A stretch of DNA of 64,000 nucleotides, from assembly GCF_025822765.1 (NCBI RefSeq), contig NZ_JACKUK010000035.1, positions 101,708 to 165,707 of the forward strand. Reading direction: 5' to 3'. A program made the position numbers and the translations under genes. Below, one piece after another: positions 44,444 to 64,000 of this stretch. The first letter of the stretch is position 1. The number at the start of each line of letters is the position of its first letter. The notes under the pieces are model-generated. The model saw only the letters and a list, made by a program, of their open reading frames with translations, did no database searches and was not told where the DNA came from. Source of the stretch: Mycobacterium barrassiae (GTDB lineage Bacteria; Actinomycetota; Actinomycetes; Mycobacteriales; Mycobacteriaceae).

Positions 44444-47400
44444 GGCTCTCCGTGTTGCGATGCCGAGAACAAGGCCGTCACCGAGGCGAGTTCGTCATCC
44501 GACAACCCCGACGCCGCCATCGGTTCGTGGTGGGTGTCACCGATCGAGGGGCCGGCCTCGGCGTTGTCGACGGTCGCGGCCAGGTCGTGAATCGCCGGAT
44601 GTTCGAACACCATTCGCGCCGTCAGCGGAATGCCCGCGTCACGCGCCCGTGCGGCCAACTGCACCGCCATGATGCTGTCGCCGCCGAGGCTGAAGAAGTT
44701 GTCGTTGCGCCCGATCTCGGGCACCTCGAGCGCCTCCGCGAGCATCTCGGCGAGTATGCGTTCAGTCTCGGTGCGGACAGGTTCGGCCGGACCGACGCGG
44801 TCTGCGGGAGCAGCGAGCACGGCCTCGGCCTCGGCCTCGGCCTCGATGATCTCGAGCTGACCCTCCGCGGTCCAGCGGCCTCGCTCACCGGTGGGCGTGA
44901 GCCTGGTGACCTGGTCCGCGTCTACGTGCTCTGTGTGGTCATATACGTCACCGATCACGCCCACTGCGACGGCATCTCGCCAATGGTCGAGCACGCTGAG
45001 ACCGGCCCCGGTGCTGAACGCGTACACCCGACGCCGCTCCTCGCGGTCGGCGATCAGGACGTCGCGCAGCCTCTGGTCGGGATCGTCGGCGAACGCCGTC
45101 AGCACCCGACCCAGCCACCGCACGTAGCGTTCGGCCGTGGACCGCCGGTACAGGTCGGTGCGATAGATGACATGGCAGCGGTACCCGTCGTCGACGGCGA
45201 AGAAGTTGACCGACAGGTCGGCGTGCGCGACGTCGAACGGCGGCTCGAGCGCGGTGAACATCGTGTCGCCGTCGGCGCCGGAGTCCACCAGTTGCCCTGC
45301 GGGCAAGGCTTCCCGAACGTGCACAACGACGTTGAAGAGCGGATTGCGCGACAACGACCGCGCGGGCCGCACCGCGTCGACGACGTGGTCGAAGGGCAGG
45401 TCCTGGTTCGCGTACGCCTCCAGCGCGGTGTCGCGGGCCGCCTTCAGCACGTCCCGCAACGACGGGTTGCCGCTCAGGTCGTTGCGCAGCACCACGATGT
45501 TGATGAAGAAGCCGACCAACTGATCGAGCGCCGCCTCGGTGCGTCCGGCCACCGGGGTGCCCAGCGGGATGTCGGTGCCCTCGCCGGCCTTGTGCAAAGC
45601 GACGGCGACCGCCGATTGAAGCAGCATGAATTCGGTGACACCGAGTTCCTGGCTCAGCTCGGCGAACTTCACACGGGTGGCGGCGTCGATCGTGAACTCG
45701 ACGGCGTCGCCCTCGCCGCTCAGCGTGGCCGGACGAGCGAAATCCGGTGTCAGCCCGACACCCTCGCGCAGTCCCGCAAGCTGTCGGCGCCAGTACTCGC
45801 GCTGCGCCGCGATGGGTCCTTCGGCGTCGGCCAGCAGCGTGGCCTGCCAGGCCGCGTAGTCCGCATACTGCACCGGCATCGGTGCGAACTTCGGTGCCTC
45901 ACCGGACCGGCGCGCGCGGTACGCCGTCAGCAGGTCGTTGAACAGCACCATCGCCGACCAGTGGTCCGCGGCGATGTGATGGACGACCAACGAGACCACG
46001 TGCGCGTCGGGCGTCGACAGCACGGCCGCACGGATCGGCAGGTTTCGTTCGAGCTCGAATACGTGCCGCCGTTCCATGTCGAGTTCGGTCTGCAGCCAGG
46101 CGTCGTCACCGCCGTGGGCCCGCCGCACGGCGACCTCGTGGTCCTCGTCGACGATTTGGTATGGCACGCCGTCGATTTCGCGGTAGGTGGTTCGCAACAC
46201 CTCGTGACGGGCGACGACATCGCGCATCGCCTGCACGAACGCTTCGGTGTCGCACGGCCCGGTGAGCCGGGCCGCGAACGGGATGTTGTTCACCGGATTC
46301 GGCCCGTCCACGCGGTATTGGAACCACATGCGCAGCTGTGACGCCGACATCTGCAGCGGACCGCCGCGAGGGATGGCGACGAGCCGCGGCCGCCGGGATT
46401 CGACGGCCGAAGCCGCATCGATCCGTTCGGCCAGTGCCTTCACCGTGCCGAGCTCGAAGACCTCGCGGACGCCGACGTCGACGTTGAACTGGTCCCGCAC
46501 CGCCGCAACCAGTTTGGTGGCCAGCAGAGAGTGTCCGCCGAGATCGAAGAAGGAGTCGTCAGCACCTACCCGGTCGCGCCCGAGCAGTTCGGCGAACAGA
46601 TCGGCGATGCGTCGCTGCGTGCCCTCGGCGGGCTCGCGGTACTCGACACCGGAGCCGATATCGGGTTCCGGCAGCGCGGTGCGGTCGATCTTGCCGTGCG
46701 CGGTGATCGGGATCTCGTCGAGCACGACGTACGCCGCGGGCGTCATGTACTCCGGCAGCGCAGCGGCGACCCGGGCTCGGATGCGTTCGACGTCGACGTC
46801 CTCGACGTCGTCGGCCGGCGTCAGATAGCCCACCAGGCTCTTGCCGAGGTTCGGCAGATCGCTGACGACGACGACCGCCTGCCCCACACTCGGGTCGACG
46901 GAGATCGCGGCGGCGACCTCACCGAGTTCGATCCGGAAACCGCGGATCTTGACCTGTTCGTCGGCGCGTCCGACGAACTCGATGTCACCGGCGGCATCGC
47001 GGCGGGCGAGATCGCCGGACCGGTAGAGCCGGCCGCCGGAGGTGAAGGGGTCGGCGACGAACCTCTCGGCGGTGAGCGTCGGTCTGCGGTGATAGCCCTG
47101 CGCGACATGCGTTCCGCCGATGTAGATCTCGCCGATGACCCCGACGGGAACCGGCTGCAGCGCATCGTCGAGCAGATGGATCTGGGTGTTGATCTTCGGT
47201 GTACCGATCGGGACGATCCGTGTGCCCTGCTTGCCCTCGACCTTGTACCGGCTGGCGTTGATCACTGTCTCGGTCGGTCCGTAGAAGTTGTGCAGCAGCG
47301 CGTCGAACGTGGCGTGGAACTTATCGGCGAGTTCACCCGGCAGCGCCTCGCCGCCGATCGGCACGCGCTGCAATGTCCGCCACTGATTCACACCCGGCAA

Positions 47401-49548: not shown

Positions 49549-49663
49549 GCGTGTTTCACTCTCTTCTGATCTCTCTGATCGTTTCCGGGAATGAGACCGG
49601 CGATGCTCAGCCCCGGTGGTGTCTCGCAGCTGGGCCTGCACGCCAAAATTCCCCGAGCGTGAA

Positions 49664-49796: not shown

Positions 49797-50657
49797 ATGG
49801 ATCTAGCAGGCATCGGTGTATGGAGTTCGCAGTTGCGCTACGGCGATCCCGGGCAGGCCGCCGAGGCCGCCGCGGAATTGGAGGAACTCGGATTCACCGC
49901 CCTGTGGATCCCCGACGTCGGCGGTCCCGTGCTCGATTCAGTGGCCCACCTCCTGTCGTCGACCAAGCAGGTGGTCATCGCCACCGGGATTCTGAATCTG
50001 TGGATGCACGAACCGTCGGATGTGGCGGAGAAGTACGCCGCGCTGACCGCTGAGCACGGAGAGCGCTTCCTGTTGGGGATCGGGGTGAGCCATGCGCCGC
50101 TCATCGATTCCAAGGAGCCCGGCCTGTATCGGAAACCGCTCGCCGCGACGCGGGCCTACCTGGATGCCATCGATGCGACCGAGAATCCCGTGCCCGTCGC
50201 CAATCGCGTGCTCGCGGCGCTCGGACCGAAGATGCTCGAACTCGCCGCGACGCGGTCCCGGGGCGCGCACCCCTACCTCGTCACGCCCGATCACACCCGC
50301 TACGCGCGTGAGCACCTCGGCGAGGGACCGCTGCTGCTGCCGGAGCAGACCGTCTTCCTGACGAACGACCGCGAGGAGGCCCGCGCGGTCGGGACCAACT
50401 GGTTGCGCTCCTATCTGGCGCTGCCGAACTATGCCAACAACCTGTTGCGCTCGGGCTTCACCCAAGAGGAGCTCGATTCGGTCAGCGACCGGCTGTTCGA
50501 CGCGCTGATCGCATGGGGTGATGAAGAGACCGTGCTGAACCGGGTGAACGAACACCTGCAGGCCGGGGCCGACCACGTCTGCGTCCAGGTGCTCACCGCA
50601 GACCCGCGGGAGTTCCCCCACGAGCAGTGGCGCCGGCTCGGTGCCGCGGTGAGCTAG
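49797..50657 (+). CDS. LLM-class (F420-dependent) oxidoreductase
   Basis: A 286-residue TIM-barrel flavin/F420 oxidoreductase of the luciferase-like monooxygenase superfamily (mycobacterial F420 subfamily). Features: N-terminal GVWSSQLRYGDP strand, ELGFTALWIPDVGG, VVIATGILNLWM, and GERFLLGIGVSHAPLI. The cofactor assignment rests on family resemblance. The substrate is unknown. It lies inside the mycobactin locus, divergent from mbtE and convergent with mbtB (four-base overlap of stops), and may share the iron-box region. Whether it modifies mycobactin or is a passenger is open. Confidence 0.85.
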   Translation: MDLAGIGVWSSQLRYGDPGQAAEAAAELEELGFTALWIPDVGGPVLDSVAHLLSSTKQVVIATGILNLWMHEPSDVAEKYAALTAEHGERFLLGIGVSHAPLIDSKEPGLYRKPLAATRAYLDAIDATENPVPVANRVLAALGPKMLELAATRSRGAHPYLVTPDHTRYAREHLGEGPLLLPEQTVFLTNDREEARAVGTNWLRSYLALPNYANNLLRSGFTQEELDSVSDRLFDALIAWGDEETVLNRVNEHLQAGADHVCVQVLTADPREFPHEQWRRLGAAVS

Positions 50658-53600
50658 CCGCTCGCCAGTTCGGACAGCACCTCGGCGCTCTCCATCCCGG
50701 CGACCTCCAGGTACACCTCGGCGACCATCGTGAGCCGGTCGGCGTCCTGTTCGCGTTCGACGAGTCGATCAGCCAACTTCGACACGCATCGCGCCGCGAA
50801 CATGTCGGCGACCTTAGCGGTCGGTGTATCGAGCCAGTCCCGGACCCGGGCGATCACCTGGGTCGCCAACACGGAATCGCCACCGAGAGAGAAGAAGTCG
50901 TCATCGACCCCGACCGTCTCGGTCGCGACGTCGAGTATCTCGGCGACAATGCCGACCAGCGCGGATTCCAGCGGCGTCGACGGAGCTCGATAGGCGTTCG
51001 CGGCCGGCGGTTCGGCTTGTGCGAGCTCCCGCGCAACGGCTTTGCGATCGAGCTTGCCGTTGACCGTGTAGGGGATCCGGCCGGCCACGACGATGATCTT
51101 GGGGATCATGTGCTCGGGCACCAGTTGGGTCAGCGCGGCGGCGACCGACTGCGGATCGAGATTCGGATCATCGGTGCTGACAAGTGCCGCAAGCAGGTCC
51201 GGCTCTCCGGGAAGGACCGCGGCGACCGCCCCGTCGACGTGCGGCACCCGCTTGAGCGCCGACTCGACGTCGCCGAGTTCGACTCGGTAGTTGCTGATCT
51301 TGACGCGGTGGTCGATGCGACCGACGAAGTCGAGGGTGCCGTCCGGTCGGTAACGGACGAGATCGCCTGTCCGATACCACGTTCGGCTGTCGTACTCAAC
51401 GAACTTCTCGGCGGTCAGGTCCGGCCGGCCGCGGTAGCCGCGCGCGATGCCCCGCCCCGACACCCACAGTTCGCCCGGCACCCAGTCCGGGCAGTCGGAG
51501 CCGTCGGCGGCGACCACGCGACAGACATTGTTGGGCAGCGGCGTGCCGTACGGCACCGCGGTCCACTCCGGCTCCGGATCCGCTACGTCGCAGATGGCCG
51601 CATGGATCGCAAGTTCGGTTGCGCCGCCGAGACCGTGGGCGCGCACGCCGGGTGCGCACTTGCGCAGACCGCGGATGAGTTCGGGGCGCACCCAATCACC
51701 GCCGAGCAGCACCACGCGAAGCCCGGACAACCGCGGGCCGCCGACAGGGAGCAGCATCTCCATCCAGCCGGGCATGAAATTCAGCATGGTGACGGAGTGA
51801 CGTTCGACGAGCTCGGCCCACTTGTCGGGATCGCGCCGGTACTGTTCGTCGACCACGACGACCGCTCCGCCGGCGCGCAGAATCCCGAAAATGTCGACCA
51901 CCGAGTGGTCGCATTCCAGCGTCGACAACGCCAGCGTGCGATCCGTCTCTCCGAGATCGAAACGGCGACTGAGGAACTCGACGGTGTTCATCACCGCGTC
52001 GTGAGTCAGCTCGACACCCTTCGGCTCGCCGGTCGACCCCGACGTGAACAACACGTAGGCCAGATCTCCGGGATCGACCGGGGTGGTTTCGGTGTCGACG
52101 TGAGCCTGCATCGCCGCAGCGACGGTGAGGACCGGTGCGGTCGCTTCGGTGCGGCCGTCGCCGCAGAGCAGCACGGCAGCGACGCCGCTGGACTCGAGGA
52201 TCCTGGCAGTCCGGTCGGCGGGCTGGTCGGTGCCGATCGGGAGATAGGCGGCGCCGGCGGCGAGGATGCCGAGCATCGCGGGGATCTGCTCGGCGCACTT
52301 GGGGCCGACGAGCGCGACCAGATCGCCGGACTGAACTCCGTTGCGGCGTAACGTTTCCGCAATGGCGAGGGCCCGCGTGCGCAACTCTGCATAGGTCAGG
52401 TCGCCGTCCTCACTGAACACGGCGGGCGCATCGGGTGTCGCCAGCGAATTGCGGAAGAACCCGTCGTGGAGCGCCTCCCCACTGGGCGGCGCCGTCACGC
52501 CGTTCACCGCGTCGCGCACCACGCGTTGGCTCTCGGGCACCGCGGGCGGATCGGAAGCGTCCCACGCCGCGTCGTCGGCGGCCAGCCGCGCCAGTTCCGC
52601 CACGTGATAGGCGAACATCGCTTCGGGAACTCCTGGCCGGAACGCGTCGATGCGGACGTCCCAGTTGATCATCAGACCGGTGGCCAGGGGTGTCGCCTGC
52701 GCGTCGATGAGTACCTGCGGGCCTTGGGAAATGGTCCACACCGGCGCACCGAACGCGTCGGTGACCTCACCGGCGAACAGGTCGCCGAGTCCGAGCGCAC
52801 TGGTGTACACGATCGGGGCGAGCGTCTGGGTGCCGCGGTGGCGGCCAAGGTCGCGCAGCACGGACAGGCCGGAGTAACTCGAATGACGGGCGGCGTCGTG
52901 CAATGTCTGCTGCACCGCACGGGTCCGATCCGCGGGGCTCCTGGTCTGCGTCAGGTCGATGTCGAGCATCAGCGACGAGGTGAAGCAGCCGACCAGCTTG
53001 TCGACATCGGGATGGAAAGGCTCCCGGCCGAACATCGGCAGGTTGAGCAGGAACCGGGATCCGCTGGACCACCGCGCCAACGCATTCGAGTACGACGCGG
53101 CCACGGCCATCGCCGGCGTGAACCCGCGCCGGTGCGCGGCCGCGAACAGCGCGTCGCGCGTCGCCACGTCGAAGACATGCCAGAGTCGGATGCTGCGTCG
53201 GGGGTCGGCCTGCTCGGCCAGCGGAACCAGCGGCAGCGCAGGCGATTCGGGCAACTCGGGGATGCGGTCGGCCCACCACTTCCTGTCCTCGTCGGAGGGT
53301 CCGGGATCGGCGGCGGTGAGCGAGCTGCGGTACTGGCGATAGGTGTAGCCCAGTTCGGGCAGTTCACCACCGCGGTAGAACACCGCGAGGTCGGCCATGA
53401 AGTTGCGGTAGCTCACCGCGTCGGCGGCATCCATGTCCATGTCGACGTGTAACCGCGTCCGCCCCTCCGGCAGCAGCGACAGACTCAGCTCGAGCACATC
53501 GCCGTCGAGCATTTGATGCGATTTCTGGTGGCGCAGGTCTTCCAGCCGCTGCTCGGCCGCTTTCAGGTCGAGTTCACGCAGGTCATAGACGGTGACCGGG

Positions 53601-54151
53601 AGGTCGCGATCGCCGATCCGCTGGGTGCCGTCCGGCAGAATCTCCACACGCAACATCGGGTGCCGCGCAACGAGTTTCGCCGCCGCCTCGCGCAGACGGT
53701 CCGGATCGACGCCGGTGCCGTCGAACTCGACGTACAGGTGGGCAGCGACGCCGCCGAGCTGCTGATCGTCGTTGCGGCCCAGCCACATCGCGTGCTGCAT
53801 CGGCGTCAGCGGGAAGGCGTCACCTGAATCCTTACGTGCATCCACATGTGCATCCACACCGGACCGGTCTTCGGCCTCCGCCGATTCGTCGGCCCCCGAG
53901 CGTCCGGCCACCAGCGCCGACCACGCGGCCACCGTCGGGGTCTCCGCCAAGGCGGCGAAGTTGACGTCGATTCCCTGCTTTCGCCACCGCCCGGACAGCG
54001 ACATCATGCGGATCGAATCGAGGCCGGACGCGATCAGGTCGGCGTCGGAGTCGACCTCGTCGGGCGTCACGCCGAGCAGCTCTGCGACCTCCGCGCGGAC
54101 GGTGTCGAGTGAACGACCACCGCTGTTGTCTGCCCCGCCCGCAACACCCAC
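50654..54151 (-). CDS. mbtB: non-ribosomal peptide synthetase MbtB (without thioesterase domain)
   Basis: A 1165-residue NRPS that receives the aryl acid from MbtA and condenses and cyclises it with Ser/Thr to an aryl-oxazoline. I prefer GTG 54151, with GGAGG five bases upstream, over TTG 54163. Domains: aryl carrier (ASGLDSIRMMS, about 40), cyclisation (about 105-530, with the DxxxxD signature as DMDMDAADAVSYR), adenylation (about 555-1010, VLFTSGSTGEPKGVE), carrier (SLGGDSVLATQ, about 1065). It ends after the carrier, about 240 residues short of M. tuberculosis MbtB, which has a C-terminal thioesterase; that activity is probably supplied by mbtT. Confidence 0.94.
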   Translation of the reverse strand: MGVAGGADNSGGRSLDTVRAEVAELLGVTPDEVDSDADLIASGLDSIRMMSLSGRWRKQGIDVNFAALAETPTVAAWSALVAGRSGADESAEAEDRSGVDAHVDARKDSGDAFPLTPMQHAMWLGRNDDQQLGGVAAHLYVEFDGTGVDPDRLREAAAKLVARHPMLRVEILPDGTQRIGDRDLPVTVYDLRELDLKAAEQRLEDLRHQKSHQMLDGDVLELSLSLLPEGRTRLHVDMDMDAADAVSYRNFMADLAVFYRGGELPELGYTYRQYRSSLTAADPGPSDEDRKWWADRIPELPESPALPLVPLAEQADPRRSIRLWHVFDVATRDALFAAAHRRGFTPAMAVAASYSNALARWSSGSRFLLNLPMFGREPFHPDVDKLVGCFTSSLMLDIDLTQTRSPADRTRAVQQTLHDAARHSSYSGLSVLRDLGRHRGTQTLAPIVYTSALGLGDLFAGEVTDAFGAPVWTISQGPQVLIDAQATPLATGLMINWDVRIDAFRPGVPEAMFAYHVAELARLAADDAAWDASDPPAVPESQRVVRDAVNGVTAPPSGEALHDGFFRNSLATPDAPAVFSEDGDLTYAELRTRALAIAETLRRNGVQSGDLVALVGPKCAEQIPAMLGILAAGAAYLPIGTDQPADRTARILESSGVAAVLLCGDGRTEATAPVLTVAAAMQAHVDTETTPVDPGDLAYVLFTSGSTGEPKGVELTHDAVMNTVEFLSRRFDLGETDRTLALSTLECDHSVVDIFGILRAGGAVVVVDEQYRRDPDKWAELVERHSVTMLNFMPGWMEMLLPVGGPRLSGLRVVLLGGDWVRPELIRGLRKCAPGVRAHGLGGATELAIHAAICDVADPEPEWTAVPYGTPLPNNVCRVVAADGSDCPDWVPGELWVSGRGIARGYRGRPDLTAEKFVEYDSRTWYRTGDLVRYRPDGTLDFVGRIDHRVKISNYRVELGDVESALKRVPHVDGAVAAVLPGEPDLLAALVSTDDPNLDPQSVAAALTQLVPEHMIPKIIVVAGRIPYTVNGKLDRKAVARELAQAEPPAANAYRAPSTPLESALVGIVAEILDVATETVGVDDDFFSLGGDSVLATQVIARVRDWLDTPTAKVADMFAARCVSKLADRLVEREQDADRLTMVAEVYLEVAGMESAEVLSELASG

Positions 54152-54164
54152 ACTGTCCTCCAAA

Positions 54165-54206
54165 TTAGTAAAGGCTGCCCTAACTAATTCGGCGAGGCTA
54201 CCTTAT
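54165..54206. promoter_or_regulatory. IdeR iron boxes in the mbtB-mbtA intergenic region
   Basis: TTAGTAAAGGCTGCCCTAA (54165-54183) matches the consensus at 14 of 19 positions and TTCGGCGAGGCTACCTTAT (54188-54206) at about 13. The pair covers the divergent promoter region of mbtB and mbtA, where M. tuberculosis also has two IdeR sites. Confidence 0.7.
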
Positions 54207-54251: not shown

Positions 54252-55904
54252 ATGAGCACTGGTTTAGAGCCTCAGCAGAGCGATCTCACCACGGGCTTCG
54301 TGCCGTTTCCGGCCGCGCGCGCCCAGCAGTATCGCGAGGCGGGTTACTGGACCGGACGACCGCTGGATTCCATCCTCGGCGACGCCGCCGCGGCCTGGCC
54401 GGATCGCGCCGCGGTAATCGATCCGAACGTCTCCTACACCTTCGCCGAACTGAACATGCGCGCCGACCGCATCGCCGCGGCGTTGGCGGATCGCGGCATC
54501 GCGGCCGGTGATCGAGTGCTGCTGCAGCTGCCCAACACGGCGCAGTTCGCCGTGGCGTTGTTCGGCCTCCTACGCGCGGGCGTGGTACCGGTGATGTGCC
54601 TTCCGGGCCACCGCTATGCCGAGCTGTCGCACTTCGCCGAGGTCAGCGGTGCGGTCGGCGTGGTCATCGCCGACCAGGTCGCCGGGTTCGACTACCGCGA
54701 ACTGGCCCGCGAGTTGATGGCCGACAACCCGCGCCTGACCCACGTGTTCGTCGATGGTGACCCCGGGGAGTTCGAATCGTGGTCGGAGCTGGCCGATTTC
54801 GACGGCCTCATCCCCGACCGCGCGGCCGTCGACACGAGTACGCCCGCGCTGCTTCTGGTGTCGGGCGGCACAACCGGACTGCCGAAGCTGATCGCGCGCA
54901 CCCACGATGACTACGTGTACAACGCGACCGCGTGCGCGAAAGAGTGCGGACTCACCGGCGACGACGTCTACCTCGTCGCCTTGCCCGCCGGCCACAACTT
55001 CCCGCTCGCCTGCCCCGGTCTGCTGGGGTCGATGACCGTCGGCGCCACGTCGGTGTTCACCACCGATCCCAGCCCCGAGTCGGCATTCGCATTGATCGAC
55101 CGGCACCGCGTGACGGTGACCGCGCTCGTCAACGCACTGGCCAAGGTGTGGACGCAGGCCTGCGAGTGGGAACCCGTGCTGCCCACGTCGCTTCGCCTGC
55201 TCCAGGTGGGCGGTTCGCGGATGACCGCCGAGGAGGCGCGCTACATCCTGGACGGTTTGACGCCGGGCCTGCAGCAGATCTTCGGAATGGCCGAGGGGAT
55301 GCTGAATTTCACCCGCCCTGGCGACGATGTCGACGTCGTGCTCAACACGCAGGGCCGGCCGATGTCGCCGCATGACGAGATGCGCGTCGTCGACGAGGCG
55401 GGCCGCGAGGTCGCCCCCGGCGAGGAGGGTGAGTTGCTGGTGCGCGGGCCCTACACCCTCAACGGCTACTACCGGGCCGACGAGGCGAACGCGCGGTCGT
55501 TCAGCCCCGACGGCTTCTACCGCACCGGCGATCGGGTGCGGATCTTCGCCGACGGTCCCCGAGCGGGCTACGTCGAGGTCACCGGACGCATCAAGGATGT
55601 CATCCATCGTGGCGGCGAGACCGTGTCTGCGTCCGACCTCGAGGAGCACCTGTTCGCCCATCCGGCGATCTATGCCGCGGCGGCGGTCGCCCTGCCCGAC
55701 GAGTACCTGGGCGAAAAGATCTGCGCGGCAGTCGTCTTCAGCGGGCCTGCGATCACGCTCAGCGAGCTGAATCAGTTCCTCGACGAACGCGGGGTGTCGG
55801 CACACTCACGGCCCGACGTGCTTGCCCCGATGTCGACGCTGCCCAAGACGGCCGTCGGCAAGGTGGACAAGAAGAAGGTCGTGGCGCACCTCGTGTCGTC
55901 CTGA
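54252..55904 (+). CDS. mbtA: aryl acid-AMP ligase MbtA
   Basis: A 550-residue adenylating enzyme that activates salicylate or a methylated salicylate and transfers it to the MbtB aryl carrier domain. ATG 54252 gives the MSTGLEPQ start; the long upstream frame is antisense to mbtB. Motifs: LLLVSGGTTGLPKLIARTH (about 197-215), FGMAEGMLNFTRPGD, FYRTGDRV, GRIKDVIHRGGETVS and catalytic Lys in KTAVGKVDKKKV. The aryl-acid pocket residues could indicate whether 6-methylsalicylate fits; I cannot judge that without a structural alignment. Five bases separate its stop from that of the convergent PKS. Confidence 0.95.
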   Translation: MSTGLEPQQSDLTTGFVPFPAARAQQYREAGYWTGRPLDSILGDAAAAWPDRAAVIDPNVSYTFAELNMRADRIAAALADRGIAAGDRVLLQLPNTAQFAVALFGLLRAGVVPVMCLPGHRYAELSHFAEVSGAVGVVIADQVAGFDYRELARELMADNPRLTHVFVDGDPGEFESWSELADFDGLIPDRAAVDTSTPALLLVSGGTTGLPKLIARTHDDYVYNATACAKECGLTGDDVYLVALPAGHNFPLACPGLLGSMTVGATSVFTTDPSPESAFALIDRHRVTVTALVNALAKVWTQACEWEPVLPTSLRLLQVGGSRMTAEEARYILDGLTPGLQQIFGMAEGMLNFTRPGDDVDVVLNTQGRPMSPHDEMRVVDEAGREVAPGEEGELLVRGPYTLNGYYRADEANARSFSPDGFYRTGDRVRIFADGPRAGYVEVTGRIKDVIHRGGETVSASDLEEHLFAHPAIYAAAAVALPDEYLGEKICAAVVFSGPAITLSELNQFLDERGVSAHSRPDVLAPMSTLPKTAVGKVDKKKVVAHLVSS

Positions 55905-55909
55905 CGGTA

Positions 55910-58900
55910 CTAGGGCACCGGAACTTCCTGCGAAACGTCCGGCGTCGCCAGGAGTTCGGTGATTCGCTCCGACACGGCCGCCGCGGTCGGGTACTCCCAC
56001 AGCAGCGTCGGCGGCAGCGACAGCCCGGTCTGCTTCTCGAGTTGGCGCAACAGCCCGACGGTCATGATCGAGTCGACACCGATCTCCACCAACGGCAGCG
56101 CGGTGTCCACGTCGCCCTCCGGCAGTCCGAGCTGGGCGGCCACCGCGGCCACCACCCGCTCAGCGACGCGCTGTGGATCGGGCCCGCCGTCGTCGCCGAC
56201 AAAGCTGTCCAACAAAACATCCGGCATGTCCGACCCGTCGTCCTCGACCGGCGCCACGTCGGCGAGCATCGGCACCGCTGCGGCCTCCGGAAGAACCGGC
56301 AGCACAACGATGTTCGATTCGCCGTCGCGCATCGCCAGGTCCAGTGCACGGACGGCTTCATCGGCGCCGATGGTGCCCATGCCGAGCGCGTCCAGCTGCG
56401 CCGCGACGAAGCCTGACGTCGAGCCCATGCCCAGCCCCCGCCACGCCGTCCACGCGATGCTGACGGTGCGGTCGCCGAGGCCCCGGCGATGGCGCGCCAT
56501 GACGTCGAGGAACGAGTTCGCGCACGCGTAGGCTCCCTGGCCGGGGAAGCCTGCGAGGTAGCCACACGACGAGAACAGCACCATCCAGTCCAACTGCTCC
56601 GGCGGGAACACCTCGTGCAACGTCAACGTGCCGTCTACCTTCGGGTGCATGGCGGCCACGAAGTCGGCAGGGCTCGTGTTGACAAGCAGCGCACCGGCTT
56701 CCACACCAGCCGCGTGGATGACACCGCGCACCGGCGGCAGATACCGCAGCGCGGCGCGTAACGCGTCGGCCGCGTCCGGCGCGCCGATGTCGAGCGGGAT
56801 TATGTGCACCGACACGCCGCGCTCCTCCAACGCGGCCACGGTGCGGATCAACTCGGAGTCCCCCGCATCCCGCCACTCGGCGCGTTCGAGCATGCCGGTG
56901 CGGGACAGCAACACCAACCGTCGTGCGCCGATGTCGGCGAGCCGTTGCGCCATGCGCAGACCGAGAACGCCTGTGCCGCCGGTGATCAGGTAGGTGCCAC
57001 CGGCCGAACACTGCATGAGGGTACCGGTCCCGCGGCCTGCGAACGCCAGCCGCGCCACCTGAGCGACGCCGTCACGGAACACGACGACGGGGTGGCCGTG
57101 CAGCGACGCCAATGCGCCGACGGGCAGGAGTTCCGCGCCGACGTCGAGCACGCCGCCGAAGACCTTGGGGTGCTCGGCGGCAGCGACTCTGGCCAGACCC
57201 CACAGCGGCGCGTGGGCCACATTCTCGCCCTCGTGCACGCGTTCGGTCAGCACCCACATGCGGGCCTTCGCACCGTGGTCGAGGAGGTGTCTCAGCGTCC
57301 GCATCACGACATCCACCGACTGCTGCGGCGAATCGCGGTTGCGGGGCAGCACCAACACCACCGCGCCGCGGTCCAACTCCACGTCGGACGCGGCGATGTC
57401 GTCCGGATCGGCGCACACCGCGTGCGGCACATCGGCGGCCACGAGGTCGCGGGTCACGAAGTGCCGGGTGTCGGCATCTCCCCCGACGACGACCACAGCT
57501 GACGGCCGGTCGTCGTCCCGCCACGGGACCACATGCCAGGTGACGCGGTGCAACATGCGCGAAAGATCGCTTCCCGCCGGGTTTTCGAGTTCCTCGAAGG
57601 ACATCCCGATCAGCGAGGCGTGGACGGCCCCCGATTCCTCCGCGATCAACACGTCGGTCGTGGTCGTTCCTGGTCGCCGCCGCACGTGAAGGACGGCCAC
57701 CGCAGACGGGCGTCCGTACACCTGCACGCGTTCGATCCTCGCGGGCATCCGCAGTCGCGGCGGGCCGTCGAAGATGGTGGAGGCCGCCGACGTCGCGGCA
57801 TCCAACAGCGGTGCCCACGTCGCGGGTTCCCTCCGATCGCGGTCGGCGGCGACCCTGGCGATCAACTCACCCTCGCCGCGGCGCAGATCGAGGATCTCCC
57901 AACCGAATCCCATCGCGGCCACGCCGAGCGTCGCCAACGTGTCCACGACGTGGTTGGGCGGCAGCACTTCGGCGCACCTCTCACGCACGGCGGACTCGTC
58001 GATCACCTGTCCCAGGAGATCCTCGATGTCGTCGTCGGCCGCGGCCACGGCGCTGCTGTGGGTGAGCCACCCACCGTCCTCGGAGTCGTCGTCCTCCATC
58101 AACCGGGTCGAGAGCGTCAGACCGCGGTCCTGCAGGACCACCTGCACATCGCGGGCCCTGCTGGGAGCAACGGGAGTGCGCAGCCGGACGTCCACGAGAT
58201 CGGTGCCGGACCGGTCCGAGCGGGTGTTCAGATCGGCGACGGCACCGAGGAATGTGTTCAAAATGACTGCAGCAGGGACGATCTCCGTGTTCTGCACGGG
58301 GTGGTCCCCGGGGTATGGCCGAGTGCTCATGTCGAGCCGTGTCTGCCAAATCGTGGACGCGACGGCCCCGGTCACGTCCATCCGCCCACCCAGCAGGGTG
58401 TGACTGTCGACGTCGTGCACGCCGCGGCCACCCGGTGGCGGTGTCGGCGTACGCCAGAAGCGGCGATGCTGCCACTGTGTGACGGGCAGCGCGTCGGCCC
58501 ACGGCGCCGATGCGTCGATGCCGTGCCGGACGGGTGCACCGTTGCAGTGCAGGTTGCCCACCGCCGTGGCCACCGCGTGCAATTCGTCACGGTCGCGGCG
58601 AAGCATCGGAACGACTGCGTGCTCGCCGATCCCGTTGTGCGTCAACGTCTCGACGATCGAATGCGCGACGACCGGATGAGCGGACACCTCGAGGAACAGC
58701 CGGTGGCCGTCCTCGGCGGCCGCCGTCACGGCCTCGGCGAAGCGCACGCGATCGCGCAGGTTGGCCACCCAGTAGTTCTGATCGCGCGGCGTTGTCGAGC
58801 GCGGGTCGGTCAGCGCGGTTGTGTACAAGGGAGTCTCGGCGGGTCGCGGGCGCGGCAGCGCAGCGGTGAGTCGACCGAGTTCGGCGGTGAGCGCGTCCAT

Positions 58901-61084
58901 CGCCGGACTGTGGAATGCCACGTCGGTGTTGACCCGTCGGATCATCACGCCCTCGTCGGTCCAGATCTTGCAGACGTGCTCGACGGCGTCGACCGTGCCG
59001 GATATCACGGTCGACGCGGGTGAAGCGCTGATCGCCGCCACCACGTCGCCGTGTCCGCTTAGCCGTCGTTCCGCCTCGGAGAACGGCAGCCGCACCAGAG
59101 CCATCGCTCCGTCGCCCATCACCGACTGGAAGCCACGGGCGCGATAGCACGCCACGGCGGCGCCCACCGTCAGGTCGAATACGCCGGCCGTCACGCACGC
59201 GGCGACCTCACCGACCGAGTGTCCGATCACCGCTGCGGGTGTGACGCCTCGCTCGCGCAGCACGGCGGCCAGGCCCACCTGCATCGCAAACGTCAACGCC
59301 TGCACCCGGTCCGTGCCGCCGAGTTCCCCGGTGCGCAGCGCGTCGCGTGCGCAGAACCCCAACTCGGCAGCGAACACCGGATCGATCGCGTCGATGACCG
59401 CGGCGAACGCGGGCTCGCGTTCGAGCAGCTGACGTCCCATCCCCGACCAGTGCGATCCGTGCCCGGAAAACACCCACACGGCGCCGTCGGGTGCCGCGGC
59501 AAGGGCCCGGGCGGTCACGACGGACGGATCGGCCTCATCGTCGGCCAGCGCGTCGAGTCCGGCCACGAGGCCGTCGATGTCGTCGGCCACCACGGCAGCC
59601 CGCGTTGGTTCGTGGGAACGGCGCGTCCACGCGGCGGCGGCCACACGGTCGATTCCGTGGTCACCGGCGCGCAGGTGGTCGGCCAGCGCCCGGGCCTGTG
59701 CACGCAGCCGGGCGGTCGACCGCGCCGATATCGGTACCACCACGGGGTTCGCGATCGCTACGTCGACGGCCGACGGCTCCGCAGCCGGGGCCTCCTCGAG
59801 CAGGATGTGGGCGATCGTGCCGCCGTAGCCGTAGCTGCACACCGCGGCACGGCGCGGTGCGCCCTCGACGCGTTCCCATGGCTCGACCGTGGTGGGCACA
59901 CTCAAACCGCTGGCGGCCCAATCCACCGCTGGTGTAAGTGTTTTCAGTCCGGCGGTGGGTGGGATGGCCTCGTGGTGCAGCGCCAGCGCCGCCTTGATGA
60001 GGCCGACCACGCCCGCCCCACCCTCGAGGTGGCCGACATTGGGCTTCACCGAGCCGATCCGGCACGGCGCTTCGGCTGGTCGATCGACTCCGTAGACGGA
60101 GGCCAGCGCCCGCACCTCGGTCGGATCGCCGGTCGGCGTGCCGGTACCGTGCGCCTCGATGAAGTCGACGCTGCGCGGTGGCACGCCCGCCGATTCGCAT
60201 GCGCGCGCGAACATGTCCGCCTGCGCCTCGCCGTTGGGCGACATGATGCCGACGGTGCGGCCGTCTTGCGCGACCGCGCCCCCACGCACGAGAGCGAGCA
60301 CCCGGTCGCCGTCGCGCACCGCGTCGGCAAGTCGTTTGAGCACGACGACCGCCGCGCCCTCGCCACGCCCGTAGCCGTCGGCGTCCGCGTCGAACGTCTT
60401 GCACCGCCCGTCCGGCGCCGTCGCCCCGGCCTCGTCGAGCACCCGGGTGAGCCCCGGTCCGATCAGCGCGCTGACGCCACCGGCCAGAGCCAGCGACGTC
60501 TCGCCGGCACGCAGCATCTGGCACGCCTGGTGCACGGCGACGAGCGACGCGGCACAGGCGGCGTCCAGCGCGACGCTCGGACCGCGGAGGTCGAGGAGAT
60601 GTGACACGCGGTTGGCGATCCCGCACAGGGACGTGCCGATCCCGGTCCAGGCTTCGATACCGGGCAGGTCCTCCATGATCAACTTGCCGTAGTCGTCGGA
60701 GTTGACGCCCATGAGCACCGCGGTGTCACTACCCGCGAGCGTTCGCGGCGGTACCCCGGCATGTTCGAGCGCCTCCCAACTGACCTCGAGCGCCAGCCGC
60801 TGCTGGGGGTCCATCAGTTCGGCTTCGCGCGGCGATACGCCGAAGAACTCGGCGTCGAAGCCGGCAAGGTCGTCGAGGAAAGTGCCCCAGCGGGTGGTCT
60901 CCTTCAGGACCGCAGCATTACGCGGGTCTCGGCGTAGATACGGCTCCCAGCGCTCCTCAGGAACTTCGCGGACGTCGCTTCGACCCTCGGTCAGAAAGGT
61001 CCAGAACTGGGCGGGGTCGCTGATGCCGCCGCCCAGGCGGCAGCCGATGCCGATGAGCGCGATCGGTTCGTTCGCGGCGGCCAT
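55910..61084 (-). CDS. iterative type I PKS, probable 6-methylsalicylic acid synthase
   Basis: A 1724-residue single-module PKS: KS (1-430; C177 DAACAASL, H312 EAHGTGTPTGD, H352), malonyl-type AT (about 535-830; GHSVG S623, VAFHS), thioester hydrolase/DH-like (about 890-1160; H928), KR (about 1365-1545; ITGGTGVLGL, YACANSF) and ACP (EIGVDSIMTV, about 1675). Length and order equal 6-methylsalicylic acid synthases, and specific stretches match that family: MGVNSDDYGKL, GPGLTRVLDEAG and TRLDMSTRPYPGDHP, TEIVPAA. It should make 6-methylsalicylate from four malonyl/acetyl units for MbtA. It occupies the place of mbtI in M. tuberculosis and has an iron-box-like site upstream. Confidence 0.85.
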   Translation of the reverse strand: MAAANEPIALIGIGCRLGGGISDPAQFWTFLTEGRSDVREVPEERWEPYLRRDPRNAAVLKETTRWGTFLDDLAGFDAEFFGVSPREAELMDPQQRLALEVSWEALEHAGVPPRTLAGSDTAVLMGVNSDDYGKLIMEDLPGIEAWTGIGTSLCGIANRVSHLLDLRGPSVALDAACAASLVAVHQACQMLRAGETSLALAGGVSALIGPGLTRVLDEAGATAPDGRCKTFDADADGYGRGEGAAVVVLKRLADAVRDGDRVLALVRGGAVAQDGRTVGIMSPNGEAQADMFARACESAGVPPRSVDFIEAHGTGTPTGDPTEVRALASVYGVDRPAEAPCRIGSVKPNVGHLEGGAGVVGLIKAALALHHEAIPPTAGLKTLTPAVDWAASGLSVPTTVEPWERVEGAPRRAAVCSYGYGGTIAHILLEEAPAAEPSAVDVAIANPVVVPISARSTARLRAQARALADHLRAGDHGIDRVAAAAWTRRSHEPTRAAVVADDIDGLVAGLDALADDEADPSVVTARALAAAPDGAVWVFSGHGSHWSGMGRQLLEREPAFAAVIDAIDPVFAAELGFCARDALRTGELGGTDRVQALTFAMQVGLAAVLRERGVTPAAVIGHSVGEVAACVTAGVFDLTVGAAVACYRARGFQSVMGDGAMALVRLPFSEAERRLSGHGDVVAAISASPASTVISGTVDAVEHVCKIWTDEGVMIRRVNTDVAFHSPAMDALTAELGRLTAALPRPRPAETPLYTTALTDPRSTTPRDQNYWVANLRDRVRFAEAVTAAAEDGHRLFLEVSAHPVVAHSIVETLTHNGIGEHAVVPMLRRDRDELHAVATAVGNLHCNGAPVRHGIDASAPWADALPVTQWQHRRFWRTPTPPPGGRGVHDVDSHTLLGGRMDVTGAVASTIWQTRLDMSTRPYPGDHPVQNTEIVPAAVILNTFLGAVADLNTRSDRSGTDLVDVRLRTPVAPSRARDVQVVLQDRGLTLSTRLMEDDDSEDGGWLTHSSAVAAADDDIEDLLGQVIDESAVRERCAEVLPPNHVVDTLATLGVAAMGFGWEILDLRRGEGELIARVAADRDRREPATWAPLLDAATSAASTIFDGPPRLRMPARIERVQVYGRPSAVAVLHVRRRPGTTTTDVLIAEESGAVHASLIGMSFEELENPAGSDLSRMLHRVTWHVVPWRDDDRPSAVVVVGGDADTRHFVTRDLVAADVPHAVCADPDDIAASDVELDRGAVVLVLPRNRDSPQQSVDVVMRTLRHLLDHGAKARMWVLTERVHEGENVAHAPLWGLARVAAAEHPKVFGGVLDVGAELLPVGALASLHGHPVVVFRDGVAQVARLAFAGRGTGTLMQCSAGGTYLITGGTGVLGLRMAQRLADIGARRLVLLSRTGMLERAEWRDAGDSELIRTVAALEERGVSVHIIPLDIGAPDAADALRAALRYLPPVRGVIHAAGVEAGALLVNTSPADFVAAMHPKVDGTLTLHEVFPPEQLDWMVLFSSCGYLAGFPGQGAYACANSFLDVMARHRRGLGDRTVSIAWTAWRGLGMGSTSGFVAAQLDALGMGTIGADEAVRALDLAMRDGESNIVVLPVLPEAAAVPMLADVAPVEDDGSDMPDVLLDSFVGDDGGPDPQRVAERVVAAVAAQLGLPEGDVDTALPLVEIGVDSIMTVGLLRQLEKQTGLSLPPTLLWEYPTAAAVSERITELLATPDVSQEVPVP

Positions 61085-61111: not shown

Positions 61112-61130
61112 TCTGGATAGGCTTCCCTAA
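61112..61130 (-). promoter_or_regulatory. probable IdeR iron box upstream of the PKS
   Basis: Read on the plus strand, TCTGGATAGGCTTCCCTAA agrees with the palindromic IdeR consensus at 14 of 19 positions by hand count, as good as one of the mbtE boxes. It lies 27 bases upstream of the PKS start. The remaining gap to the anti-sigma gene contains nothing else recognised. Confidence 0.6.
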
Positions 61131-61269: not shown

Positions 61270-61974
61270 TTATAGGGTCTTGACCGCCAGCGGCTCGTCG
61301 GTGCCCGACACCCGGATGTCGACGCTGCGGATGTCCGAGGTGGGGATACTCGTGGCCGCCGACAACCCGGTGGCCTCGTCGCCCGCCGGCCGCCACGAAC
61401 CGACGGTCGTTTGCGCCCCGTCCTTCGTCGTCACGACGATGTCGTAGCTCTTGACGTCACGCGACCACGCCTTGGTGTACTGGCACGCCCAATGGAGTTC
61501 GGTGCCCCACTTCTTTTCTGTGACGGCGAGCTCGGCGGTCAGGCCCTCGCGCGCTCCCGGCTGCATCGGCGCCATCGCCACCGTCTGCACCGTCCCCGCC
61601 GTGCGGGGAAAGACCGTTGCTCCGACGACACCGCCGATGATCGCCAATGCCGCCGCGGCCGCGACGAGCACGGCCAGCCCGGTACGCCGCGAGCGCCGTT
61701 GCCGCGCGGCCGCCCCGTGGGCCAGCGACGCGACGTTGTCGCCCCGCGGTACCTCGGCGGGGCTGTCGCCGAGGTCGGTCAGCGCCAGTGCCTCGTCGCG
61801 GCTGAGCACGCTGAGAATGTCGGGCATCGCGGCGATCTCGTCGAACTCCGCGGTTCGCTCCGGATTGGCGGCGAGATAGTTCTCGAAGGTGCGCCGATCC
61901 TCGAGGTTCAGTGCACCGAGCACGTAGGCGGCGTCCCATTCGGCGACGTCGTCGTCGGGTCGTTCGTCAGTCAC
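61270..61974 (-). CDS. membrane anti-sigma factor (RskA/RslA-like)
   Basis: A 234-residue protein. GTG 61974 overlaps the sigma gene by eight bases, so translation is coupled. The cytoplasmic N-terminus (1-90) has the helical anti-sigma layout, DAAYVLGALNLEDRRTFENYL, but lacks the HxxxCxxC zinc motif. One membrane helix (about 94-118) is followed by an extracytoplasmic RskA-like domain ending in DIRVSGTDEPLAV. It would hold the cognate ECF sigma inactive until a signal triggers proteolysis (known for the family). Confidence 0.82.
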   Translation of the reverse strand: MTDERPDDDVAEWDAAYVLGALNLEDRRTFENYLAANPERTAEFDEIAAMPDILSVLSRDEALALTDLGDSPAEVPRGDNVASLAHGAAARQRRSRRTGLAVLVAAAAALAIIGGVVGATVFPRTAGTVQTVAMAPMQPGAREGLTAELAVTEKKWGTELHWACQYTKAWSRDVKSYDIVVTTKDGAQTTVGSWRPAGDEATGLSAATSIPTSDIRSVDIRVSGTDEPLAVKTL

Positions 61975-62632: not shown

Positions 62633-63826
62633 CTAAGCGAGCAGAGTGCGGACCACCGCGTCGGCCAACAGGCGGCCCGGATCCGTGAGGATCAAACGGT
62701 CGCCGTCACGCGTCAGCAGGCCGTCCTCGATCACGGTTTGCGCCCGGCGCAGCTCGGCATCGTCGAGGGCTGCCAGCGGCAGCCCGTCGCGCAACCGCAC
62801 CCGCAACATCACGTCCTCGGTGTGCTGCGCGTTGGAGTCGAGCCGCTCGAAATCGGCGACCGGCAGTACACCGTTGGCCAATACCTGCGCATAAGCGTTG
62901 GGGTGCTTGACATTCCACCACCGCGTCGTACCGACGTAACCGTGCGCACCCGGTCCGGCACCCCACCATTCGCCGCCGTTCCAGTAGCCGATGTTGTGTC
63001 GGCACTCCCCGCCGGGCAGGCACCAGTTGGACACTTCGTACCAACCCAGGCCGGCCGCGGACAGCCGCGCATCGATCAACTCGTAGCGATGCGCGAGCAC
63101 GTCGTTGTCGGGGGCGCTGATCTCACCCCGCCGCACCCGCCGAGCCAGTGCGGTGCCGTCCTCGACAACCAACGCATAGGCCGACACGTGGTCGACCTGC
63201 GCCTCGATCGCGGCGTCCACCGAACGCCGCAGATCGTCGTCGGTCTCCCCCGGAGTGCCATAGATGAGGTCGAGGTTGACGTGGTCGAAGCCCGCCGCGC
63301 GGGCATCACGCGCCGCGTCGAGCGCCCGGCCCGGCGAATGCACCCGGTCGAGCACCGCCAGGACGTGCGGGGCCACCGACTGCATACCGAGCGACACCCG
63401 GGTGAAGCCGGCCGCGCGCAACTGCTCGAAGAGCTGCGGCGACGTCGACTCGGGGTTGGCCTCGGTGGTGACCTCGGCGTCGGCGGCCAGGGTGAAGTGG
63501 CTGCGTATCGCGTCCAGCACCGACGCCAAACCCTGCCCACCGAGCAGCGACGGCGTGCCACCGCCGACGAAGACGGTGTCGATCTCCGGGATGCGGCCCA
63601 GGTGGCGCGCCGCCAGCGCCAACTCCGCCCGCAGCGCCTCGAGCCAGCCGTCGGGGTTGGCGCCGCCCAGCTCGCCGGGGGTATAGGTGTTGAAGTCGCA
63701 GTAGCCGCAGCGTGTGGCGCAAAACGGCACGTGGATATACACGCCGAACGGAAGACCCGGCGCAGGGGCCATCGCCGGCAGCGCCACCGGTGCGGCGTTC
63801 GGAGTCCCTGCGGTTCGGACGGTCAC
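62633..63826 (-). CDS. hemW: heme chaperone HemW (formerly HemN-like)
   Basis: A 397-residue radical SAM protein. GTG 63826 is chosen, giving the expected distance to the cluster motif; the open frame continues to 63949 into insertion-sequence DNA. The 4Fe-4S ligands are C36, C40 and C43 (CATRCGYC), followed by DTVFVGGGTPSLL and NPES. The HemW type lacks the extra N-terminal residues needed for coproporphyrinogen oxidase activity and is thought to insert heme into proteins. In M. tuberculosis hemN (Rv2388c) likewise lies just beyond mbtI. Confidence 0.9.
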   Translation of the reverse strand: MTVRTAGTPNAAPVALPAMAPAPGLPFGVYIHVPFCATRCGYCDFNTYTPGELGGANPDGWLEALRAELALAARHLGRIPEIDTVFVGGGTPSLLGGQGLASVLDAIRSHFTLAADAEVTTEANPESTSPQLFEQLRAAGFTRVSLGMQSVAPHVLAVLDRVHSPGRALDAARDARAAGFDHVNLDLIYGTPGETDDDLRRSVDAAIEAQVDHVSAYALVVEDGTALARRVRRGEISAPDNDVLAHRYELIDARLSAAGLGWYEVSNWCLPGGECRHNIGYWNGGEWWGAGPGAHGYVGTTRWWNVKHPNAYAQVLANGVLPVADFERLDSNAQHTEDVMLRVRLRDGLPLAALDDAELRRAQTVIEDGLLTRDGDRLILTDPGRLLADAVVRTLLA

Positions 63827-63852
63827 CCAGCCAGTTTCCCAGACCGCGGTTT

Positions 63853-63867
63853 CGCTCACCGTGAGCG
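63853..63867. repeat. 15-bp palindrome upstream of hemW
   Basis: CGCTCAC-C-GTGAGCG, a perfect 7-1-7 palindrome 27 bases before the hemW start, followed by GCAAATCTCGCC. It could be an operator or a piece of a dispersed repeat; no regulator is evident. Confidence 0.45.
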
Positions 63868-63906
63868 CAAATCTCGCCCGGTTAGACATCCCAAGTGCGC
63901 AAGTTG

Positions 63907-64000
63907 TCAAGCGGCCTTTGCGGTGGGGATGTTTTGGCGGTGCGACCATGCTGTCTGCTCGTCGTATGCGGTGCGGTGGCGCAGGCAGCCGTGGAGGATG
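63907..64000 (-). CDS. C-terminal end of an IS110-family transposase (rest outside window)
   Basis: The minus strand reads ILHGCLRHRTAYDEQTAW and then SHRQNIPTAKAA before TGA at 63907-63909. An ILHGCL...Y(D/N)E..AW stretch close to the stop is characteristic of the C-terminus of IS110/IS116/IS902 transposases. Only 30 residues are visible, so integrity and element ends cannot be judged. IS110 elements lack long terminal inverted repeats. The insertion lies about 80 bases upstream of hemW and may have replaced its original promoter. Confidence 0.8.
   Translation of the reverse strand, partial: ILHGCLRHRTAYDEQTAWSHRQNIPTAKAA

What the first reader, a model, noticed from the sequence alone, without database searches (positions are those of the whole stretch)
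55910..61084. A 6-methylsalicylic acid synthase sits where mbtI is expected, inside a mycobactin locus
The protein has KS-AT-TH/DH-KR-ACP order, 1724 residues, a malonyl-type AT, and stretches characteristic of 6-MSA synthases rather than ordinary modular PKSs (MGVNSDDYGKL, GPGLTRVLDEAG, TRPYPGDHP with H928, TEIVPAA). It lies tail to tail with mbtA, on the strand and in the place where M. tuberculosis has the salicylate synthase mbtI, with an iron-box-like site upstream. Some mycobactins are known to carry 6-methylsalicylate; this would be the enzyme supplying it, a polyketide route replacing the chorismate route.
Basis: partly seen in the sequence, partly recalled or inferred. Interest (0 to 1): 0.88.

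Follow-up and report, generated by a model that had tools for sequence, protein, structure and literature searches.

The report
Polyketide route to mycobactin's aryl cap
In many environmental mycobacteria the enzyme that normally makes salicylate for their iron-scavenging molecule is replaced by a large polyketide enzyme that most likely makes 6-methylsalicylate, and that enzyme appears to have spread together with a matching partner enzyme.

Summary
Confirmed. Window 55910-61084 (-) encodes an intact 1724-aa PKS (KS-AT-TH/DH-KR-ACP, no thioesterase found; listed catalytic residues kept in 43 of 43 full-length orthologs). It lies tail to tail with mbtA, in the slot and orientation where other mycobacteria have mbtI, behind an IdeR-like box. 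The 99.98%-complete genome has no match over the salicylate synthase cut-off. Among 396 genus genomes, 314 carry mbtA: 105 have this PKS only, 188 MbtI only, 20 both, 1 neither; all 125 PKS genomes have mbtA, within 10 kb in 116 of 117 same-contig cases. In 63 sampled loci MbtA forms two clades that match the PKS/MbtI-only split, whereas hemW and trpE trees do not, so mbtA and the PKS seem to travel together. PKS-linked MbtA has changed residues in its aryl-acid region. Fifteen of the 20 genomes with both, and seven named loci, keep mbtI beside the PKS. Best reading: a 6-methylsalicylate synthase feeding MbtA. The product is inferred, not measured. 6-Methylsalicyl mycobactins are old chemistry (recalled); nine searches of the held open library listed no gene assignment.

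The parts
55910..61084 (-). iterative type I PKS, predicted 6-methylsalicylic acid synthase (1724 aa)
   Evidence: ORF, Pfam domains, KS tree, residues conserved in 43 of 43 full-length orthologs
59795..61069 (-). KS domain (aa 6-430); C177, H312, H352
58535..59479 (-). AT domain (aa 536-850), malonyl-type (GHSVGE, AFHS)
   Evidence: malonyl reading of the motif is recalled knowledge
57515..58402 (-). TH/DH domain (about aa 895-1190; Pfam marks 895-987); H928 and D1095 align with the His and Asp of 7VWK that I take as H949 and D1104 of AviM PT (same spacing of 155 residues in that chain)
56438..56998 (-). KR domain (aa 1363-1549) with NADPH motif; K1482, S1505/S1506, Y1519, N1523
55961..56161 (-). 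ACP (aa 1642-1708), S1672; last domain
61112..61130 (-). IdeR-like iron box just before the PKS start
   Evidence: (32 of 43 orthologs have one at 14 or more of 19)
54252..55904 (+). mbtA, aryl-acid adenylating enzyme of the PKS-linked subfamily (N294, R323, I343, M350, F353)
54165..54183 (+). IdeR-like box between mbtA and mbtB
50654..54163 (-). mbtB-like NRPS (condensation-type, AMP-binding, two carrier matches); start codon uncertain
44440..49641 (-). mbtE-like NRPS; iron boxes at 49664-49701 upstream
40100..44443 (-). mbtF-like NRPS
38787..40190 (-). mbtG-like lysine/ornithine N-monooxygenase
34364..36946 (+). IrtA-like ABC transporter with siderophore-interacting domain; iron boxes at 34314-34337
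28483..29256 (-). thioesterase (mbtT-like), iron boxes at 29258-29281 just upstream
27170..28486 (-). mbtC-like ketosynthase
23059..27141 (-). MbtD/NbtC-like AT-KR-PCP with C-terminal methyltransferase
62633..63949 (-). hemW, the flanking gene also found beyond mbtI in MbtI-type loci

Best explanation
The PKS is a 6-methylsalicylic acid synthase that supplies the aryl cap of this species' mycobactin-type siderophore in place of MbtI. Proposed steps: AT loads malonyl-CoA; KS makes three condensations on an acetyl starter; KR reduces one keto group; the TH/DH domain (H928/D1095) steers dehydration, ring closure and release; free 6-methylsalicylate is adenylated by MbtA and passed to MbtB. Shown here: intact domains and active-site residues, mbtA linkage, iron boxes, absence of MbtI over cut-off, complementary distribution, matched MbtA subfamily. 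Inferred: chain length, reduction pattern, identity of the acid, its use by MbtA. mbtA and the PKS behave as a cassette that most simply entered MbtI-type lineages at least twice; two such lineages still hold an mbtI of their own.
For: Domain order, no thioesterase match; listed catalytic residues in 43 of 43 (46 loci had a PKS, the three left out are L037 cut by its contig, L038 and L130 not in one full frame). KS: 11 mycobacterial rows form a clade, joined with 9 actinobacterial PKSs at 100 support; the other 19 PKS rows sampled lie outside (quick tree, labels set by hand from KS rank and frame length; each of the nine also matches the TH/DH query). TH/DH region: one solved match under E 0.001, 7VWK, taken as the ring-forming domain of the orsellinate synthase AviM. 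No MbtI over cut-off in the own genome; the three weaker hits read to me as TrpE, PabB and isochorismate synthase, the last confirmed by a family model; no PchB over cut-off. Of 314 mbtA genomes: 105 PKS only, 188 MbtI only, 20 both, 1 neither; PKS without mbtA in 0 of 125. Within 10 kb of mbtA in 116 of 117; 29 are co-directional, 28 of them at most 223 bp apart by estimate. Iron boxes. MbtA: 43 PKS rows and 20 MbtI-only rows are two sides of one branch at 100, while hemW (p 5.8e-7) and trpE (p 6.8e-85) reject PKS genomes as one clade. MbtA: N294, R323, I343, F353 in 44 of 44 against P, K, V, Y in 20 of 20; 7 of 9 near-fixed differences lie in residues 249-353, P 2e-4. Precedent: a 6-MSAS is proposed to feed a salicylate-type adenylating enzyme for cahuitamycin C (PMC4757757, passages).
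Against: No product data. Related KR-bearing PKSs make naphthoates in other bacteria (recalled). CahJ, crystallised with 6-methylsalicyl-AMP, has the ordinary residues at the changed MbtA positions, and PchD has R at one of them, so those changes are not required for, nor proof of, 6-methylsalicylate. PKS and MbtI coexist in 20 genomes. The PKS is in two frames in L038 (M. houstonense) and split in G076, so it is dispensable or lost in some lines that have or had mbtI. The best NCBIfam match of the PKS is below its cut-off.
Confidence: 0.86

Rival explanations
1. The PKS supplies MbtA with a different aromatic acid, such as orsellinate (no reduction) or a naphthoate (longer chain).
For: The TH/DH domain is homologous to the AviM ring-forming domain of an orsellinate synthase; domain layout alone does not fix chain length.
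Against: AviM-type orsellinate synthases are KS-AT-PT-ACP, whereas here the KR is complete and its residues are kept in 43 of 43. V to I at a ring-contact position of MbtA (position mapped) narrows rather than widens the pocket, which speaks against a naphthoate; this is inference.
Confidence: 0.08
2. The PKS makes a separate lipid or metabolite and lies by mbtA by chance or as a hitch-hiker.
For: Many mycobacteria carry several PKSs (one search shows 23 and 11 KS matches in two of them); product not shown.
Against: Never without mbtA (0 of 125), 116 of 117 within 10 kb in two gene orders, near-complete exchange with MbtI, iron boxes, KS outside the modular and Pks13-like rows.
Confidence: 0.03
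3. Salicylate still comes from another route in these species and the PKS only adds a minor variant.
For: 20 genomes have both genes; an isochorismate synthase is in the own genome.
Against: In 105 of 125 PKS genomes no MbtI passes (only the four best candidates per genome were scored); the own genome lacks a PchB-type lyase over cut-off (the best hit reads to me as a secreted chorismate mutase). PchB was sought in the own genome only.
Confidence: 0.04

Closest known systems
Bacterial iterative 6-methylsalicylate/orsellinate synthases (AviM and CalO5 seen in PMC9135731 passages; ChlB1 recalled; cahuitamycin 6-MSAS seen in PMC4757757 passages)
   Same: One-module KS-AT-TH/DH(PT)-(KR)-ACP; His-Asp pair aligned with 7VWK
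   Different: Lies beside the siderophore adenylating gene that it is thought to feed; iron box in front; mycobacterial clade of its own
Cahuitamycin pathway of Streptomyces gandocaensis (PMC4757757, passages)
   Same: A 6-MSAS and an MbtI homologue (CahI) are both proposed to feed one aryl-acid ligase (CahJ)
   Different: There the 6-MSAS gene is unlinked (at least about 50 kb away) and CahI is present; here the PKS is linked to mbtA and usually occurs without MbtI
MbtI salicylate synthase of mycobactin loci (TIGR03494)
   Same: Same slot, strand and supposed role
   Different: Unrelated protein and chemistry: chorismate there, acetyl/malonyl-CoA and NADPH here
Mycobactins with 6-methylsalicylate (P, A, H, part of F; Snow and co-workers, recalled, not read)
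   Same: Predicted product type
   Different: Those were chemical findings; no gene assignment was listed by the nine searches named in the report

Membership tests
6-methylsalicylic acid synthase | KS-AT-TH/DH-KR-ACP on one chain, no thioesterase | tested here: met
6-methylsalicylic acid synthase | Active-site residues of KS, AT, TH/DH, KR, ACP intact | tested here: met
   43 of 43 full-length orthologs, window included
6-methylsalicylic acid synthase | KS groups with iterative aromatic PKSs, not modular or lipid PKSs | tested here: inconclusive
   Groups with 9 single-module actinobacterial PKSs and apart from 19 others at 100 support, but no characterised 6-MSAS was in the tree
6-methylsalicylic acid synthase | Malonyl-specific AT | tested here: met
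   GHSVGE and AFHS motifs; motif meaning recalled, specificity not assayed
6-methylsalicylic acid synthase | Makes 6-methylsalicylate | not testable with these tools
   Needs enzyme assay or mass spectrometry
Salicylate synthase MbtI (TIGR03494) | Match over the curated cut-off in the genome | tested here: not met
   best 171 bits, cut-off 325
Mycobactin locus | mbtA, mbtB, mbtE/F-like NRPSs, mbtG, mbtC/D-like PKSs, IdeR-like boxes | tested here: met
   gene names by domain content and position
Mycobactin locus | MbtD over its curated cut-off | tested here: not met
   720 bits for MbtD (cut-off 1150), 1413 for NbtC (cut-off 1150)
Modular or lipid PKS (Mas/Pks2, Pks13) | KS within that clade, match over model cut-off | tested here: not met
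   no Mas/Pks2 row was labelled as such in the tree, the model scores (886 of 2400; 768 of 2100) are below cut-off

The most novel reading that the evidence does not exclude
An mbtA-PKS cassette has spread horizontally among mycobacteria and repeatedly displaced the chorismate route, carrying an MbtA subfamily whose otherwise conserved A5 motif (QQV..MAEGL) is remodelled to QI..MAEGM for 6-methylsalicylate; M. fortuitum-complex species keep both suppliers and so make siderophores with mixed caps from one NRPS line.
Probability: 0.58. Interest if true: 0.78.

Novelty: new variant of a known kind. Interest (0 to 1): 0.72.

Why it matters
It assigns a gene to an old chemical puzzle (6-methylsalicylate in some mycobactins, recalled) and shows that about a third of the mbtA-bearing species sampled (105 of 314) have the PKS and no MbtI over the cut-off. 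MbtI is pursued as a drug target (recalled), so such inhibitors should not starve these species of iron, while MbtA inhibitors might. It also gives a natural case of an unrelated enzyme replacing a pathway entry step together with a change in its partner enzyme, with mixed intermediates still alive.

Tried and rejected
Strict palindrome search TTAGGTTAGNCTAACCTAA found nothing at up to 3 mismatches; a degenerate IdeR consensus, recalled, was then used. The residue four after H928, usually G, is N in this protein (N932), at first suspicious; it varies among orthologs (G in 30 of 43), so it is not a defect. KS-AT similarity to MAS and DEBS in the solved-structure list suggested a lipid PKS; the KS tree did not support that. 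No NCBIfam model reached its cut-off for the PKS among the 25 shown. The far mbtI of G031, G109, G163 and G363 looked like a second siderophore locus; for the three read (G031, G109, G163) it lies about 2.5 kb from hemW. G076 has a split PKS and an mbtI with stops, and L038 (M. houstonense) has its PKS in two frames (biology or assembly error not told apart); both are described only. A first count labelled L130 (G076) as not PKS-type because its broken PKS scored low; it was moved to the PKS group, where its single-frame mbtA piece agrees with that group. PMC10667711 (passages) reports mbtI missing from M. porcinum; locus L019 of M. porcinum holds a 71% mbtI homologue beside the PKS, so that report may reflect a cut-off or strain difference.

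Weak points of the survey: searches scored only the 3 to 4 best candidates per genome; one search rescored all candidates in 21 genomes (the 20 with both, and G355) and agreed. Genomes in those calls are unnamed and were drawn evenly from a larger group. The Fisher P ignores kinship. Trees are quick ones. The residue range 249-353 used was chosen after the first look at the differences. M. phlei, M. aurum and M. thermoresistibile could not be picked out by name, so the recalled chemistry was not tested on them. In the named loci an mbtI further away than the fetched flank would be missed.

Full report
What is there. The minus strand of the window from 61084 to 55910 holds one open frame of 1724 residues. 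Pfam finds KS, AT, the N-terminal half of a PKS dehydratase domain, KR and a terminal carrier domain, with nothing after it. In the own genome, 99.98% complete, the other matches of this protein are an 1818-aa frame that I read as Pks13, the MbtC/MbtD-like pair of this window, and three frames of 417 to 458 aa that I read as FabF/KasA-type enzymes.

Is it a working iterative synthase? In the alignment of the 43, all keep the KS triad, the AT serine and AFHS, H928, D1095, the KR glycine motif with Lys, Ser, Tyr and Asn, and the carrier serine. The TH/DH region matches one solved structure under E 0.001, 7VWK; five others appear only at E 0.002 to 0.8. The text of PMC9135731 holds the code 7VWK once (that passage was not shown to me) and describes (abstract and passages) the ring-forming domain of the orsellinate synthase AviM, with H949 catalytic and D1104 supporting; the aligned His and Asp of 7VWK are 155 residues apart, as H949 and D1104 are, so I take H928 and D1095 as their counterparts. 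AviM is KS-AT-PT-ACP; this protein also has a KR. A tetraketide with one reduction gives 6-methylsalicylate, which is recalled knowledge of 6-MSAS.

KS tree. A quick tree of 39 rows puts 11 mycobacterial proteins in one clade, joined at 100 support with 9 actinobacterial PKSs (frames of 1673 to 2242 aa), and leaves 19 other PKS rows on the other side. I had set the labels by hand from KS rank and frame length; all nine also match the TH/DH query at E 1e-38 or better. The 19 are modular PKSs, three Pks13-like rows and several other mycobacterial or actinobacterial PKSs, among them L096, a one-module 1925-aa protein with a similar TH/DH motif. One of the nine (L087/L092) lies beside a KSIII-like protein, a P450 and an EryCIII-like glycosyltransferase, the kind of setting where aryl acids are attached to larger polyketides (recalled). 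None of the nine is a characterised enzyme, which limits the label. In 200 genomes of the order, matches outside the genus were found in 9 genomes, at most 45% identical.

Does it replace MbtI? The best TIGR03494 matches in the own genome score 171, 88 and 72 bits against a cut-off of 325; by my reading of the frames they are TrpE and PabB, and an isochorismate synthase by family model. A PchB-type lyase is not over its cut-off; its best hit reads to me as a secreted chorismate mutase. In 396 genomes of the genus, the 481-residue TH/DH-to-KR query gives matches at E 1e-20 in 162; 125 of these are below 1e-100, with at least 52% identity, and the listed rest have at most 34%. MbtI passes in 210 of 396 and mbtA in 314 of 396 at E 1e-150. 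Of the 314: 105 PKS only, 188 MbtI only, 20 both, 1 neither (G355, 88% complete); the PKS occurs without mbtA in 0 of 125, MbtI without mbtA in 2 of 210. The Fisher P printed there (1.8e-61) ignores kinship and is only a description.

Where does it sit? In 117 genomes with PKS and mbtA on one contig, 116 have them within 10 kb and 91 within 1 kb, gene ends being estimated from partial matches; 88 are tail to tail and 29 are co-directional, mbtA then PKS. Seven genomes have them on different contigs, and the mbtA place of one (G076) was not listed. In 17 of 17 MbtI loci with both genes in view, of 20 stretches fetched, mbtI is tail to tail with mbtA; in the 9 of these with hemW in view, mbtI lies between mbtA and hemW. 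So the PKS fills the mbtI slot.

Genomes with both. In 15 of the 20, mbtI lies roughly 200 to 300 bp upstream of the PKS on the same strand (my estimate from the positions; three read). Seven of the 30 named orthologous loci show the same pair: M. septicum, three M. peregrinum, M. porcinum, Mycobacterium sp. GA-1841 and M. houstonense, largely the M. fortuitum complex (recalled grouping); in M. houstonense the PKS is in two frames. Four genomes have mbtI far from the PKS; in the three read it is about 2.5 kb from hemW, while mbtA and PKS form a tandem elsewhere. G076 has both genes broken. Recalled chemistry says that mycobactin F of M. fortuitum carries both caps, which would fit; I did not read that source.

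Travelling together. MbtA of 43 PKS loci and 20 MbtI-only loci fall on two sides of one branch with 100 support. On hemW (48 rows, 38 PKS and 10 MbtI-only) PKS genomes need three changes, and one clade is rejected, p 5.8e-7. hemW borders the locus, so trpE was used as a distant marker in 30 genomes chosen 15 and 15: seven changes, at least three forced by strong branches, p 6.8e-85. mbtI of the two lineages with both genes falls in two separate places of the mbtI tree, one of them among MbtI-only kin. The simplest account is transfer of an mbtA-PKS cassette into MbtI lineages, which lost their own mbtA and in some cases kept mbtI. Old paralogues with differential loss are not excluded.

MbtA. 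Between 44 PKS-linked and 20 MbtI-only MbtA proteins, N294/P, R323/K, I343/V and F353/Y differ without exception, and M350/L in 42 of 44; seven of nine near-fixed differences lie in residues 249-353, about a fifth of the chain, P 2e-4; that range was chosen after a first look, and all differences fall on one branch of the mbtA tree. By the alignments, I343 is CahJ V350 and DhbE V329, and M350 is DhbE L336. PMC11253843 (passages) gives V350 and G327 as neighbours of the ring's 5-position and G327/G328 of the 6-position in CahJ, and calls the A5 motif with QQV and MAEGL strictly conserved in aryl-acid enzymes. The two matching glycines (G320, G321) are unchanged here, so a 6-methyl group should fit; the V to I and L to M changes break that motif. 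CahJ itself was crystallised with 6-methylsalicyl-AMP while carrying the ordinary residues, and PchD has R at the 323 position, so these changes mark a subfamily rather than prove a substrate.

Regulation. Sites with 15 or more of 19 matches to a recalled degenerate IdeR consensus occur in the window only at 29.26, 34.31, 49.68, 54.17 and 61.11 kb: before the mbtT-C-D genes, the IrtA-like transporter, mbtE, between mbtA and mbtB, and before the PKS; ten first-order simulations gave none at 15, and two gave some at 14. A site of 14 or more lies just upstream of the PKS in 32 of 43 orthologs, against 46 of 1290 random 300-bp windows of the same loci; five of the 11 without it are loci where the PKS follows mbtA on the same strand, six are not.

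Literature. Full-text searches of the held open library on this question were (sought the AviM paper). Searches held no paper. None of the listings named a paper tying a mycobacterial PKS to 6-methylsalicyl mycobactin; I opened passages of seven papers (PMC4757757, PMC10296737, PMC10667711, PMC10701892, PMC9505556, PMC9135731, PMC11253843) and judged the rest from title and start of abstract. PMC4757757 (passages) is the nearest precedent. PMC10667711 (passages) reports mbtI missing from M. porcinum, of which 8 of 13 isolates were nevertheless CAS-positive. Most subscription papers are not held, so prior description elsewhere is possible.

Verdict. The added points are the genus-wide exchange with MbtI, the cassette behaviour, the genomes with both suppliers, the MbtA subfamily and the iron-box set. 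The enzyme kind is known; its role as a common entry step of a mycobactin-type pathway is, as far as these searches go, unassigned.

Noticed in passing
window 23059-27141 (-): MbtD/NbtC homologue carries a C-terminal methyltransferase domain (aa 1179-1274) and passes the nocobactin NbtC model instead of MbtD; a methyl branch on the hydroxy-acid part would fit recalled mycobactin P chemistry.
   Followed up: partly
window 49797-50657 (+): F420-dependent LLM oxidoreductase (TIGR03620) inside the mbt locus; a homologue over 60% identical lies in 16 of 36 stretches with the PKS and no mbtI in view, and in 0 of 35 others fetched, in two different positions. Stretches differ in length.
   Followed up: partly
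window 61270-62391 (-): 373-aa protein with weak anti-sigma similarity and no Pfam hit, between the PKS and hemW; found in the nearest relatives among the loci compared (L012, L013, L030-L032, L138).
   Followed up: no
window 20858-22969 (-): PhoH-like protein of 703 aa, PhoH match in two pieces with a LAGLIDADG match (aa 449-509): probably an intein.
   Followed up: no
L130, L129 (G076): A genome in which the PKS is split and mbtI carries stops: apparent decay of the siderophore pathway.
   Followed up: partly
L038 10001-15140 (+), M. houstonense: PKS open in two frames of 501 and 1192 aa, with mbtI beside it; loss or assembly error.
   Followed up: no
L089, L090 (G029, G206): A second family of about 1800-1925 aa single-module PKSs with a similar TH/DH motif (HRFHGVEVVPA, HRIGGVEVVPA) but only about 31-32% identity to the TH/DH query, seen in MbtI-type and PKS-type mycobacteria; product unknown.
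   Followed up: no
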